NCBI GenBank assembly: GCA_900473915.1 | Contig: UCNG01000006.1 | Location: 265,878-329,877 of the forward strand | Direction of reading: 5' to 3' | DNA: 64,000 nucleotides | Source of the DNA: Hyphomicrobiales bacterium | GTDB lineage: Bacteria > Pseudomonadota > Alphaproteobacteria > Rhizobiales > Rhizobiaceae | In this document: piece by piece, positions 52,687-61,808 of the stretch | How the letters are laid out: every line of letters starts with the position of its first letter | Numbering within the stretch: the first letter of the stretch is position 1 | Translations under genes and position numbers: made by a program | The notes under the pieces: generated by a model | What the model was told of the DNA's origin: nothing | The model's input: only the letters and a program-made list of their open reading frames with translations | The model's database searches: none

Positions 52687-54243
52687 TCATTGATTATCCC
52701 GCAAGCGCGTGCTCCATTTGCACACAAAACAAAGCTCAGTGTTGACTGGCGATGTCAGGCTGGCGAAAATGATGGCTCCATCATAGGGCATGAGAATATC
52801 GCTGCCATCAGCCCGCTTGCCGATGATTTCACCGGCCCCGACCGCTTCCGCCGCCTTGAATTGCCTGATCAGGTGATCGTCTTCATGTTTCGCCATGATG
52901 GCGTCAGCAATTTCCAGCACTGCCGGCACAGGCATTTTCGCCGGTTCATCAGCGATGAGGCCGAGCGTGATCATGCCATTGATAACGCAGTCATATCCGA
53001 CCTGCGGCGCCTCGGGAGCCAGATGCTGGCCGCATTCGACCGTCACGCCATAGCCGCCAGCAAAGCGCATATATTCGGTGGTGCCGACACCAAGCAATGG
53101 CGAGAGGTCTTCGGTTACGCCCAGTTCCCGCTTCTGCTGGTTGGCCTTTTCAAAGGCTGGCAGCCAGCCATAGACGACCAGCGGCAGGCCAAGCGCCTTT
53201 GCGAGTCTTGCCTCGGCCTGCTCATGGGCGAATGGCTCAAGGTCGCCATTATTGTTCTCTGGCCCCATCAGCGCGAAAGCATCGCCTTCAGAACTGAAAG
53301 AGTGCAGATCGATCAGCACGTCATGGGCGCGAAAGAGCGGGCAGAGGACATTGGCGATGCGATCCTCATTGTCCTGTGGAATGGCGCTTTCGGCCAGCCT
53401 GCGGTTGAAATTGCGTTCGCCAATGCGCGTATTGTTGCGGAAAGCGAGGCCATTGACCACCGGTACAAAGGTGACGGTGCCACGCTGCAACTGGCGCTGG
53501 CCGGTGCGAAATTCCTGGATCAGCCGGCTGATGGCGAGGGGCCCGCAAGGTTCGTTGCCATGAACGGAACCGGTGACGATCAGGCGCGGCCCCGGCTTCA
53601 AACCATGGAAAGTGACGCTTTCGATTGATTGGACCGGCTTGGCGACAAGCGGTTTCAAGGCCGTTGGCTGGTCATGAATCGACGCGATGTCTATGACCAT
53701 GCCGGGAGATACCCGATGTGCCAGTTCGCGCAGATGTTCATGGGCGACCACGACGCAGCCGGCGGTTCCGCTGAAATCCGGTCGCGCGGCATGCATAAAT
53801 ATGGCTGAACCGCCGCGGGCAGCTGGCACCGCATCGTTCCAGCCAATCGGAATGATCAGGTCGAACAGAGCTTCACCGCGTCGAGAGGGCTGCGAGGTAT
53901 CGGTTTCGAAGACCAGTTGATTGTAGAACGGGCTATCGCTGTCTTCCACCCAGCGATAGTTTTCCGGCTTCGGCAGAAATGGAAATTCGACATTGCGCAA
54001 TTCATCACCGAATACGGACGGATCATAGAACCCGTAGCGCAGCGGATAGCGGCCTCGCGGGGTCCTGCCATCGCCTTCGCGCTTCAACTGAGGGTCAATC
54101 AGGCCGTTGCGGCCAATGGCGCATTTGACCGTCCAGTCGCCGATCGACAATAGCCCGATATGCGGGTTGTGCGGATCATGACCGCTGCGAACAACGATGG
54201 TGGGTTGTTCAAGTGTTCCGACCATAAACGGATTTTGATGCAT
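52687..54243 (-). CDS. YkuD L,D-transpeptidase domain fused to AstE/AspA zinc deacylase domain
   Basis: A 518-residue two-domain enzyme. Residues 10-190 are a YkuD-type domain of the subgroup lacking the GCxR arginine: His151 in FMHAARPDF and Cys163 in TAGCVVV form the active site. Residues 200-500 match the M14-related succinylglutamate desuccinylase/aspartoacylase family: His228-x-x-Glu231 (SVHGNEP), His314 (DLHSFSSEG), and Glu403 (TVECGQH) as probable general base. No signal peptide or membrane segment is visible. The gene follows an ABC ATPase gene by 4 bases and ends the seven-gene peptide operon. It may cleave L,D or N-acyl bonds in imported peptides. Confidence 0.82.
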   Translation of the reverse strand: MHQNPFMVGTLEQPTIVVRSGHDPHNPHIGLLSIGDWTVKCAIGRNGLIDPQLKREGDGRTPRGRYPLRYGFYDPSVFGDELRNVEFPFLPKPENYRWVEDSDSPFYNQLVFETDTSQPSRRGEALFDLIIPIGWNDAVPAARGGSAIFMHAARPDFSGTAGCVVVAHEHLRELAHRVSPGMVIDIASIHDQPTALKPLVAKPVQSIESVTFHGLKPGPRLIVTGSVHGNEPCGPLAISRLIQEFRTGQRQLQRGTVTFVPVVNGLAFRNNTRIGERNFNRRLAESAIPQDNEDRIANVLCPLFRAHDVLIDLHSFSSEGDAFALMGPENNNGDLEPFAHEQAEARLAKALGLPLVVYGWLPAFEKANQQKRELGVTEDLSPLLGVGTTEYMRFAGGYGVTVECGQHLAPEAPQVGYDCVINGMITLGLIADEPAKMPVPAVLEIADAIMAKHEDDHLIRQFKAAEAVGAGEIIGKRADGSDILMPYDGAIIFASLTSPVNTELCFVCKWSTRLRDNQ

Positions 54244-54247
54244 GGGA

Positions 54248-55270
54248 TCAGCTTTGCTCTAACAGATGGCAACGGGCACGGTGGCTGGCCTGTTCGCGCA
54301 GATGGGTGAAGGCGGGGATGTCGCCGGTGCGACACATGTCGAATGCCGATGGGCAACGCGGATGAAAGGCGCAGCCGGACGGCGGGTTGAGCGGGGAGGG
54401 CGCTTCGCCCTGCATGCGGCGCTGGCGCTTCGCGGGATTCAACGGATCGGGGATCGAGGCAATCAGGGCTTGCGTGTAAGGGTGCAGCGGATTGGTGAAA
54501 ATATCGCTCCAGATGCCTTCCTCAACGATGCGGCCAAGATACATGACCGCAATGCGATCGCTCATATGTTCGACCACTCCCAGATCGTGAGAGATCATCA
54601 GCAGCGCGATGCCAAGCTCGTCTTTCAGCTCCAGCAACAGGTTGATGATTTGCGCGCGGATCGACACGTCAAGTGCTGAAACCGGCTCATCGCAGACCAA
54701 AAGTTTAGGTTTGACGATAAGCGCGCGCGCAATACAGATACGCTGCCGCTGGCCGCCGGAAAACTCGTGTGGCTTGCGGTCAGCCGTCTCCGGTTTCATG
54801 CCGACCTTGGCCAGCATGTCGATCACATTGGCTTCAATCTCGGCCCTGTCTTTCATGCCATGAAGACGCAACGGTGCAGCCAGTGCCTCGCGGACCGAGC
54901 GGCGCGGATTGAGGGACGCGAACGGGTCCTGAAACACCATCTGCACATTGCGGGCCTGGGCCAGCGGATTGTTTTTCACTGCGGTCGGCACATCCTGGCC
55001 AGCCACGCAGACCGACCCGGAGGTGATGGGAACCAGCCCCATGATAGCGCTGGCGAGAGTGGATTTCCCGCAGCCGCTTTCTCCCACCAGACCAAGGCAT
55101 TCTCCGGCGCGGATGGAAAGATCAATGCCGTTGACAGCTTTCAGGAGCTTTTTGCGAAAGCCGTCGCGGACGCCGTAATGAACCTTGAGGTCCTTCACGG
55201 CGAGCACCTCCGCTGATCGGGATTGCGTGTTTTGCGGTTCGGGCTGCAAGCCCGTCTTCGTTTCAGTCAT
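54248..55270 (-). CDS. peptide ABC transporter ATP-binding protein (DppF-like)
   Basis: A 340-residue ATPase: Walker A GESGCGKSTLA, Q-loop MVFQDPFASLNP, signature FSGGQRQR, Walker B LLVCDEPVSALD, and His in ISHDLGVVEH. The C-terminal oligo_HPY extension carries CAFHPRCP and later Cys residues, as in DppF/OppF, which bind an Fe-S or zinc centre. The ATG 55268-55270 overlaps the end of the DppD-like gene. It pairs with DppD-like to power the importer. Confidence 0.9.
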   Translation of the reverse strand: MTETKTGLQPEPQNTQSRSAEVLAVKDLKVHYGVRDGFRKKLLKAVNGIDLSIRAGECLGLVGESGCGKSTLASAIMGLVPITSGSVCVAGQDVPTAVKNNPLAQARNVQMVFQDPFASLNPRRSVREALAAPLRLHGMKDRAEIEANVIDMLAKVGMKPETADRKPHEFSGGQRQRICIARALIVKPKLLVCDEPVSALDVSIRAQIINLLLELKDELGIALLMISHDLGVVEHMSDRIAVMYLGRIVEEGIWSDIFTNPLHPYTQALIASIPDPLNPAKRQRRMQGEAPSPLNPPSGCAFHPRCPSAFDMCRTGDIPAFTHLREQASHRARCHLLEQS

Positions 55271-60752: not shown

Positions 60753-60769
60753 TTGGCCGATTAAGCCAA
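60753..60769. promoter_or_regulatory. LysR operator, TTGGC-N7-GCCAA
   Basis: A perfect 5+7+5 palindrome in the 74-base gap between the divergent serine-hydrolase and lysR genes; it contains the T-N11-A LysR box. This is the obvious site for the regulator encoded next to it. Confidence 0.7.
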
Positions 60770-60809
60770 GGAATTTTACATTTTGATATAGAAATCGCAT
60801 TGGAACATT

Positions 60810-61808
60810 ATGCATGTACGATATGAAGTCGGGTTGAAAACTCGCGCTTGGGCGAAAAAGGGCTGTGCATTGCAAAAGAACCATATCAATCTGCGGCAGG
60901 TGGAGATTTTCCGTGCCACGATGAAATTCGGCACCGTAACCGCGGCTGCGGCGGCGCTGGGATCGTCCCAGCCGACAATCACACGAGAGCTGTCGCGGCT
61001 GGAGGAACATATCGGCTTTCCATTGTTTGAACGCCGGTTGCAGCGTCTGGTGCCGACCGCCCGCGCGCATAAACTGTTTCAGGAAGTGCAGGCGTCGTTT
61101 ATCGGCCTTGACCGTATCAATGATTACGTGGCGCGCCTGCGCGAAGCCTCGGATGAAGTGCTGACCGTCGCGTCATTGCCAGCCTTTGCCCAGACCGTTT
61201 TGCCGGAAGCGATTGCGCGGCTCAACGCAACCCACCCCGATCTCACTCTTCAGATCAGCACGGTTGACCCGCGCAACCAGTCGAGCATCTCCGGTTTCAA
61301 TTTTGATGTCGGCCTTATCGAGGACATCTATACCGAGAATGACGCGGATTCGCGCGTGTTGTGGACTTTCAAGCTGGTGGCGGTCATGCGCGGCGATCAC
61401 CCGCTGGCAACGAAGGACTATCTTGAACCCAATGACTTTGAAGGGTTCAATTTCATCAGCCTGGGCGCGCGCGATCCTTATCGGCTGAAAGTGGAGCGCG
61501 TCTTTGACATGGCCGGCACCAACCGGCGGCTGTTCCTGTCGACGCAATCGGCCCACAGTGTTTGCGAATTGGTACTCAAAGGGCTCGGTATCTCGATCGT
61601 CAATCCGCTGACGGCACTGAGTTATGAAAAACAGGGGCTGGTGCTGAAGCCGTTTCTACCGTCGCAAAATTTCGTCCTGTCGGTGCTGCGGCCCATTAAC
61701 CGTCCCATTGTGGCCAGTTCACATGCGTTGCTGTCGCACCTGTCGCAAGTCTGTGCGGAAACGCAGGAAGCGCTGGTCAGGCGCAACCTGGTCATCAACG
61801 ACCAGTAG
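60810..61808 (+). CDS. LysR family regulator of the peptide operon
   Basis: A 332-residue LTTR. The winged HTH runs from NHINLRQVEIFRATMKFG through AAAALGSSQPTITRELSRLE to LFERRLQRLVPTARA, after an N-terminal extension of about 25 residues. Substrate-binding domain from about residue 115. A later TTG (60870) could be the real start. It is divergent from the operon and the intergenic palindrome fits its binding site. The co-inducer is probably a peptide or cleavage product taken up by the importer; inference. Confidence 0.88.
   Translation: MHVRYEVGLKTRAWAKKGCALQKNHINLRQVEIFRATMKFGTVTAAAAALGSSQPTITRELSRLEEHIGFPLFERRLQRLVPTARAHKLFQEVQASFIGLDRINDYVARLREASDEVLTVASLPAFAQTVLPEAIARLNATHPDLTLQISTVDPRNQSSISGFNFDVGLIEDIYTENDADSRVLWTFKLVAVMRGDHPLATKDYLEPNDFEGFNFISLGARDPYRLKVERVFDMAGTNRRLFLSTQSAHSVCELVLKGLGISIVNPLTALSYEKQGLVLKPFLPSQNFVLSVLRPINRPIVASSHALLSHLSQVCAETQEALVRRNLVINDQ

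What the first reader, a model, noticed from the sequence alone, without database searches (positions are those of the whole stretch)
52687..61808. Candidate cytoplasmic peptide- or murein-peptide-dismantling operon
Seen: one operon encodes a signal-less class A beta-lactamase-fold enzyme (S70xxK73, SSN, KAG), a complete Dpp/Opp-type importer, and a signal-less fusion of a YkuD domain with an AstE/AspA zinc domain, all facing a LysR gene across a perfect operator. Known: in Helicobacter, the M14 carboxypeptidase Csd4 and the YkuD-fold Csd6 trim stem peptides from tripeptide to dipeptide and from tetrapeptide to tripeptide. Inference: after import, the serine enzyme (D,D), YkuD domain (L,D) and zinc domain (D,L or N-acyl) could shorten pentapeptide to dipeptide in sequence in the cytoplasm. 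I know of no described system with this combination.
Basis: partly seen in the sequence, partly recalled or inferred. Interest (0 to 1): 0.75.

Follow-up and report, generated by a model that had tools for sequence, protein, structure and literature searches.

The report
Cell-wall peptide scavenging operon, probably DAP-sensing
A conserved eight-gene cassette of soil and plant-associated bacteria probably imports fragments of the bacterial cell wall and takes them apart inside the cell, under a regulator of the same type that senses the cell-wall amino acid diaminopimelate in E. coli.

Summary
The "perfect operator" is not confirmed: no perfect inverted repeat, but two ATATC boxes 35 bp apart. 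It is no chance neighbour set: 15 intact loci including the window carry all eight genes in one order, proteins down to about 50% identity. New evidence favours murein peptides. The regulator resembles E. coli LysR, the diaminopimelate-responsive activator of lysA: 43% identity, three relatives over NCBI's cut-off, the two nearest paralogs beside LysA-type genes. D-aminopeptidase genes flank three related loci. Best reading: import of stem peptides and trimming by serine enzyme, YkuD and zinc domain until diaminopimelate is freed and induces the operon. No enzyme step is shown, and 7 of 24 fusion loci lack this importer. The function has a precedent (B. subtilis ykfA-D beside dppB-E); I found none for the protein set: a new variant of a known kind.

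The parts
60870..61808 (+). LysR-type regulator (E. coli LysR type); ORF opens at 60810 but TTG 60870 is the likelier start
   Evidence: HTH_1, LysR_substrate; PRK11013 286 bits, cut-off 288; 43% to E. coli LysR; extension not conserved
60736..60869 (.). divergent promoter region between regulator and operon
60820..60824 (-). ATATC box 1 (half-site of the predicted E. coli LysR operator)
   Evidence: motif from PMC5002191 passages
60785..60789 (-). ATATC box 2, 35 bp from box 1
59836..60735 (-). class A beta-lactamase / PBP-A-fold serine hydrolase, no signal peptide seen; proposed cytoplasmic D,D-carboxypeptidase
58199..59800 (-). SBP_bac_5 solute-binding protein with signal-type N-terminus
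57121..58053 (-). permease 1 (DppB/OppB type)
56243..57058 (-). permease 2 (DppC/OppC type)
55263..56243 (-). ATPase 1 (DppD/OppD type)
54248..55303 (-). ATPase 2 (DppF/OppF type); ATG at 55270 may be the true start rather than TTG 55303 (inference)
52687..54243 (-). YkuD + AstE/AspA fusion, no signal-type N-terminus seen
53686..54135 (-). YkuD domain (Pfam match, residues 37-186), H151 and C163 kept; proposed L,D-carboxypeptidase
53170..53595 (-). AstE/AspA zinc domain (Pfam match, residues 217-358; similarity to homologues continues to the C-terminus); proposed D-Glu-mDAP amidase

Best explanation
It is an accessory murein-stem-peptide scavenging operon. The SBP and Dpp/Opp-type importer bring peptides such as L-Ala-D-Glu-mDAP(-D-Ala(-D-Ala)) into the cytoplasm. 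There the serine hydrolase removes the last D-Ala of a pentapeptide, the YkuD domain removes the D-Ala of a tetrapeptide, and the fused zinc domain cleaves the gamma-D-Glu-mDAP bond (the job of MpaA in E. coli and YkfC in Bacillus), freeing diaminopimelate. Diaminopimelate, or a peptide carrying it, activates the LysR-type regulator, which switches the operon on from two ATATC boxes. Shown: gene content, conservation as a unit, regulator similarity, box conservation. Inferred: substrate, each enzyme step, effector.
For: Conserved unit: all eight genes in one order in 15 intact loci counting the window (L001-L008, L010, L014, L015, L056, L068, L071), the least conserved protein at 51-53% in L010, L014 and L056. 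Regulator: 43% identity over 287 aa to E. coli LysR; PRK11013, on which E. coli LysR scores 590.7, gives 307.9, 304.0 and 296.1 for L056, L010 and L001, over the cut-off 288, and 286.3 for the window; in each of the 4 operon genomes searched (G001, G002, G003, G998) the operon's regulator is the genome's best match; the next-best matches in G998 and G001 lie beside a gene of the DAP/ornithine/arginine decarboxylase family, in G001 with a DapF-type gene too. E. coli LysR activates lysA with diaminopimelic acid, predicted sites ATATC-n5-GATAT (PMC5002191, passages); ATATC pairs at 35 bp stand in 13 of 16 operon promoters. Company: M55 D-aminopeptidase genes beside L056 (two copies), L071 and the remnant L072; class IV aminotransferase and S58 peptidase beside L056. 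No LdcA-family S66C domain in 5 of 5 genomes and Mpl over its cut-off in 0 of 5 (four with the operon, G319 with the fusion alone). A non-secreted YkuD L,D-carboxypeptidase class is known, ElsL (PMC8649774, passages and section 12). A serine-hydrolase relative (32-34%) also lies divergent from another Opp-type importer in 2 of the 3 non-operon loci found (L048, L049; not L047).
Against: No enzyme activity is shown. The fusion occurs without this importer in 7 of the 24 fusion-bearing loci examined (L011, L030, L031, L032, L072, L073, L074; L072 has another Opp-type importer nearby). Zinc-domain homologues without YkuD sit beside a related SBP and permeases in 3 of 10 zinc-domain-only loci, with an M81 peptidase, an amidohydrolase and a dehydroquinase in L034. 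Nearest solved relatives of the zinc domain are small N-acyl amino acid hydrolases, not MpaA. SerH ties with true beta-lactamases in fold comparison. A. tumefaciens was inferred to lack cytoplasmic L,D-carboxypeptidase activity (PMC9790009, passages) although 2 of its 14 YkuD proteins lack a signal peptide (PMC11527210, passages). No epimerase or dipeptidase gene is in the operon. The window's own regulator is 1.7 bits under the PRK11013 cut-off. The LysR clade has aLRT 99 but ultrafast bootstrap only 87, with long branches. Of 10 further LysR-like matches the context of 5 was looked at; only the top 2 are beside a LysA-type gene.
Confidence: 0.6

Rival explanations
1. The operon takes up and hydrolyses another amino-acid conjugate or N-acyl/gamma-linked peptide; the zinc domain is an N-acyl amino acid hydrolase like DoeB or aspartoacylase, and YkuD and the serine enzyme trim or release it. 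The regulator's effector has drifted to that compound.
For: Best solved relatives of the zinc domain are 2qj8 (phmmer and profile), then DoeB-type and related deacylases such as 3na6, 6twm/6twl and 3cdx. Unfused homologues sit beside a related importer, in L034 with M81 and amidohydrolase genes, and in L013 in a cluster with ATP-grasp, argininosuccinate lyase and cysteine synthase-like genes.
Against: Does not explain a YkuD domain, a D,D-peptidase-like serine enzyme, D-aminopeptidase neighbours and a LysR-type regulator together.
Confidence: 0.22
2. It is a system against or for beta-lactam or other cyclic peptide compounds: a LysR-regulated, divergently transcribed class A beta-lactamase with an importer.
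For: Class A fold, many beta-lactamases among the tied top matches; divergent LysR-enzyme layout as in ampR-ampC (recalled).
Against: No room for a signal peptide before the fold and none seen, so no access to drug in the periplasm; no ExxLN motif seen by eye where Glu166 is expected; the regulator's one NCBIfam match at 1e-30 is PRK11013.
Confidence: 0.06
3. The importer carries nickel or a metallophore and the enzymes are passengers.
For: Permeases score best on Opp/Nik-type models, all under cut-off: Opp2B 306.6 of 350, Opp4C 276.9 of 350, NikC 266.8 of 358.
Against: SBP is closer to Opp4A, GsiB and DppA than to NikA models, all under cut-off; three hydrolytic domains conserved with it.
Confidence: 0.05

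Closest known systems
B. subtilis ykfABCD next to dppBCDE (PMC2954226, passages)
   Same: Peptide importer genes next to an L,D-carboxypeptidase and a gamma-D-Glu-DAP endopeptidase thought to act in the cytoplasm; a D-aminopeptidase (DppA, recalled) in that operon, as beside L056 and L071
   Different: YkfA is S66 (recalled), YkfC NlpC/P60, YkfB an epimerase; here YkuD and AstE/AspA fused, an added class A-fold serine enzyme, no epimerase, and a LysR regulator
E. coli LdcA + MpaA recycling route with LysR-lysA (PMC2954226 and PMC5002191, passages)
   Same: Same proposed steps tetrapeptide to tripeptide to L-Ala-D-Glu + DAP; regulator of the same type
   Different: Non-homologous enzymes, one importer-linked operon; E. 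coli LysR controls lysA
ElsL, non-secreted YkuD L,D-carboxypeptidase of Acinetobacter (PMC8649774, passages and section 12)
   Same: YkuD domain in the cytoplasm, catalytic Cys, proposed same reaction
   Different: Here the domain is fused to a zinc hydrolase; orthology was not tested; that paper reports mainly gamma- and betaproteobacterial members
YejBEF-YepA of Agrobacterium (PMC9790009, passages)
   Same: ABC importer for peptidoglycan fragments in the same order of bacteria
   Different: General muropeptide recycling, widespread; this cassette is rare (11 of 394 genomes hold the fusion) and carries its own hydrolases
PBP-A of Thermosynechococcus (2j7v)
   Different: 18% identity; in fold comparison PBP-A is tied with many beta-lactamases; organism recalled

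Membership tests
E. coli LysR (PRK11013 equivalog) | score over curated cut-off 288 | tested here: inconclusive
   window 286.3 (under), L056 307.9, L010 304.0, L001 296.1 (over)
E. coli LysR (PRK11013 equivalog) | groups with E. coli LysR in a tree | tested here: inconclusive
   clade of 15 of 21 rows, UFB 87 / aLRT 99; long branches warned of
E. coli LysR (PRK11013 equivalog) | diaminopimelate as effector | not testable with these tools
   needs binding or reporter assay
Dpp/Opp peptide importers | SBP_bac_5, two BPD_transp_1 permeases, two ABC_tran + oligo_HPY ATPases | tested here: met
   all over cut-offs
Dpp/Opp peptide importers | peptide ligand | not testable with these tools
   no SBP model was made; NCBIfam equivalogs all under cut-off
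Non-secreted YkuD L,D-carboxypeptidases (ElsL class) | YkuD domain, catalytic Cys, no signal peptide | tested here: met
   signal peptide only by a crude hydropathy scan
Non-secreted YkuD L,D-carboxypeptidases (ElsL class) | orthology to ElsL | not tested
   ElsL sequence not at hand
Non-secreted YkuD L,D-carboxypeptidases (ElsL class) | activity on tetrapeptide, not pentapeptide | not testable with these tools
   bench assay needed
AstE/AspA zinc hydrolases | Pfam domain over cut-off with HxxE...H and Glu | tested here: met
   56.8 bits, cut-off 25; H228, E231, H314, E403 (roles recalled)
MpaA (M14 murein peptide amidase) | Peptidase_M14 domain | tested here: not met
   no M14 family listed for the fusion at E 0.01; it may work like MpaA, it is not a member
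Class A beta-lactamases | SxxK, SxN, KxG motifs and fold | tested here: met
Class A beta-lactamases | Glu166 (ExxLN) on the omega loop | tested here: inconclusive
   no such motif seen by eye in the 15 aligned sequences; the loop 161-181 has pLDDT under 50
Class A beta-lactamases | export signal | tested here: not met
   fold starts at residue 12 in the model; no signal-type stretch seen in the N-terminus (crude)
B. subtilis dpp-ykf operon | S66 carboxypeptidase, NlpC/P60 endopeptidase, epimerase | tested here: not met
   none among the operon's Pfam matches

The most novel reading that the evidence does not exclude
The fused AstE/AspA domain is a new, third kind of cytoplasmic gamma-D-Glu-mDAP amidase (beside M14 MpaA and NlpC/P60 YkfC), channelled to a YkuD L,D-carboxypeptidase in one polypeptide, with a cytoplasmic class A-fold D,D-carboxypeptidase in front: a complete import-and-dismantle line from pentapeptide to free diaminopimelate, self-induced through a LysR-type diaminopimelate sensor and carried as a mobile cassette.
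Probability: 0.35. Interest if true: 0.72.

Novelty: new variant of a known kind. Interest (0 to 1): 0.55.

Why it matters
Recent papers report muropeptide import without cytoplasmic L,D-carboxypeptidase activity in Agrobacterium (PMC9790009, passages) and no LdcA in Caulobacter, where breakdown of the stem peptide to amino acids is suggested (PMC13046382, PMC11980594, passages). This cassette would be one concrete breakdown route in some rhizobia and relatives, would give a new activity to the AstE/AspA family, and would link the founding LysR regulator type to peptide scavenging rather than only lysine synthesis.

Tried and rejected
Fusion structure: AlphaFold with 9 close sequences failed (mean pLDDT 34.9) and was not used. 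Viral contigs: 57 pattern hits, 0 relatives of the serine hydrolase; a scan with the mixed fusion alignment was not possible. PDB phmmer with the serine hydrolase alone: 0 hits. The genome samples are even draws from larger groups, and at most 3 candidates a genome were scored, so weak matches can be missed; completeness of these genomes is not told.

Considered and dropped: 'perfect operator'; AmpR-type beta-lactamase regulation (regulator matches PRK11013); Bacillus origin suggested by L001's title (its operon scores like the Pseudochrobactrum loci, and its regulator groups with L003's; the record is probably mislabelled). Rows dropped: L009 (B. cytisi) carries all eight genes in pieces through frame breaks and is not counted as intact; L070 ends with its contig after five genes and part of the SBP; L012 holds only the YkuD half and is not among the 24; the context of L025 was not looked at. 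Duplicates between collections were merged. Intergenic counts: the piece cut for L005 was too short to hold both boxes (both are visible), L010 and L014 read GTATC at the second box. The total of 45 ATATC/GATAT words against 8.0 expected rests on mononucleotide shuffles of related sequences, so it is no probability. Gene calls in fetched loci are a simple ORF script, checked with Pfam only for the 30 proteins; other neighbour names are by eye. The hydropathy scan is weak: the non-secreted-type KpsF protein scores as high as the SBP.
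Full report
OBSERVATION. The window holds, from 61808 down to 52687, a LysR-type gene on the plus strand and seven genes on the minus strand: serine hydrolase, SBP_bac_5, two permeases, two ATPases and a YkuD + AstE/AspA fusion (Pfam). Neither enzyme shows a signal-type N-terminus in a crude hydropathy scan; in the serine-hydrolase model the fold starts at residue 12. The 'perfect operator' was not found as an inverted repeat.

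CONSERVATION. tblastn with the window's proteins on the fetched loci gives 24 distinct loci with a YkuD-AspA gene, the window included and counting L009 (broken frames) and L073 (two adjacent genes). In 15 all eight genes stand intact in the same order (window, L001-L008, L010, L014, L015, L056, L068, L071); L009 has them in pieces; L070 is cut by its contig end with the part present in the same order; 7 lack this importer (L011, L030-L032, L072, L073, L074). In L010, L014 and L056 the proteins are about 50-78% identical to the window's, so the order has been kept over long divergence. Three copies lie on plasmids (L010, L014, L015) and flanking genes vary (L004 and L007 share some), as for a moving accessory cassette. 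In the family-wide sample 11 of 394 genomes hold the fusion at E 1e-60 or better: 7 with the full operon, 1 cut by a contig end, 3 without this importer. In the order-wide sample 14 of 397 genomes match at 1e-25: 4 fusions (1 in a full operon), 5 zinc-domain-only, 5 YkuD-only. In the phylum sample 7 of 398 match the zinc domain at 1e-20, 2 of them in full operons. Serine-hydrolase relatives are rare too: 4 of 289 at 1e-15 in the class sample.

THE REGULATOR. This is the new evidence. The window's regulator is 43% identical over 287 aa to E. coli LysR. On the NCBIfam equivalog PRK11013 E. coli LysR scores 590.7, the operon regulators of L056, L010 and L001 score 307.9, 304.0 and 296.1, over the cut-off 288, and the window's 286.3, just under it; for the window's regulator no other model passes E 1e-30. 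In the four operon genomes searched (G001, G002, G003, G998) the operon regulator is the best match of the genome. Of 10 further matches in that search I looked at the context of 5. The two best, L061 (277 bits) and L062 (263 bits), are divergent from a gene of the DAP/ornithine/arginine decarboxylase family, followed by an Opp-type SBP in L061 and by a DapF-type epimerase and an amino acid importer in L062; the three lower ones (L063-L065) are, by eye, not beside such a gene. A tree puts E. coli LysR, the two LysA-side regulators and the operon regulators in one clade (UFB 87, aLRT 99; long branches flagged). E. coli LysR activates lysA with diaminopimelic acid, and its predicted sites read ATATC-n5-GATAT (PMC5002191, passages; see also PMC6254735, passages). 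The operon promoters carry two ATATC boxes exactly 35 bp apart in 13 of 16 regions, including the distant L056; the second half (GATAT) of the E. coli site is not conserved there.

THE COMPANY. L056 is followed by an amine oxidase, an M55 D-aminopeptidase, a class IV aminotransferase, an S58 peptidase and a second M55. L071 and the remnant L072 also have an M55 gene next door; those two share flanking genes and count as one lineage. Serine-hydrolase relatives lie divergent from another Opp-type importer in L048 and L049, not in L047. Five genomes searched (G001, G002, G003, G998 with the operon, G319 with the fusion only) have no LdcA-family S66C domain (0 of 5) and no Mpl over cut-off (0 of 5).

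MECHANISM. Import of stem peptides, D,D- then L,D-trimming, then cleavage of D-Glu-mDAP by the zinc domain, with DAP as inducer, accounts for the enzymes, the importer, the regulator, the boxes and the neighbours together. Steps shown: gene content, unit conservation, regulator similarity. Steps inferred: substrate, reactions, effector. Against it: the zinc-domain family is broader and is found beside a related importer without YkuD in L033-L035, 3 of 10 zinc-domain-only loci, the fusion is found without this importer in 7 loci, and A. tumefaciens, which has two YkuD proteins without predicted signal peptide (PMC11527210, passages), was inferred to lack cytoplasmic L,D-carboxypeptidase activity (PMC9790009, passages), so a non-secreted YkuD protein need not be one.

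KNOWN SYSTEMS. Function: B. subtilis ykfA-D next to dppB-E, with the E. coli LdcA/MpaA/YcjG route as parallel (PMC2954226, passages). Non-secreted YkuD carboxypeptidase: ElsL (PMC8649774, passages and section 12). Csd6 as an L,D-carboxypeptidase was seen only in the search listing (PMC4599014); Csd4, MppA and DppA are recalled. In the library searched no paper holds YkuD with aspartoacylase or with succinylglutamate desuccinylase; a wider search (3 of 4 terms) gave 369 papers, of which the 10 listed do not contain the word aspartoacylase. Verdict: a new variant of a known kind, with a non-homologous enzyme set.

Noticed in passing
L001 (JAHREI010000003.1): Record titled Bacillus subtilis SK6B4 carries the operon with scores almost equal to the Pseudochrobactrum loci L002 and L003, and its regulator groups with L003's; probably a mislabelled or contaminated genome.
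   Followed up: partly
L073:10088-11653: YkuD and AstE/AspA as two adjacent genes (TAA then ATG) at the place of the fusion, without importer.
   Followed up: yes
L072:9717-11381: Fusion kept with only a 29-codon stretch like the end of ATPase 2 before it: looks like a deletion derivative of the operon beside an M55 gene, a PF00144-type serine hydrolase and another Opp-type importer.
   Followed up: partly
L033, L034, L035: Unfused zinc-domain gene beside a related SBP and permeases; in L034 also M81 (MlrC-type) peptidase, amidohydrolase and dehydroquinase II genes (Pfam), similar neighbours in L033 and L035 only by eye: a sister system with another substrate or another route.
   Followed up: partly
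L013:1-8987: Zinc-domain homologue (39%) at the end of a plasmid cluster with two ATP-grasp genes, argininosuccinate lyase, cysteine synthase-like and PhzF genes and a nearby AHL synthase: looks like a small-molecule biosynthesis cluster.
   Followed up: no
L062:3676-7225: LysR-type regulator divergent from a DAP-decarboxylase-type gene, DapF-type gene and an amino acid importer: looks like a diaminopimelate uptake and use operon.
   Followed up: partly
L014:12139-20411: Next to the plasmid copy: another Opp-type importer with a gene annotated acyl-CoA--6-aminopenicillanic acid acyltransferase.
   Followed up: no
window 62222-63823: Glycine-rich, autotransporter-like ORF (by eye) downstream of the regulator; beyond the fusion a BBP2_2 outer-membrane protein (50877-52463).
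   Followed up: no
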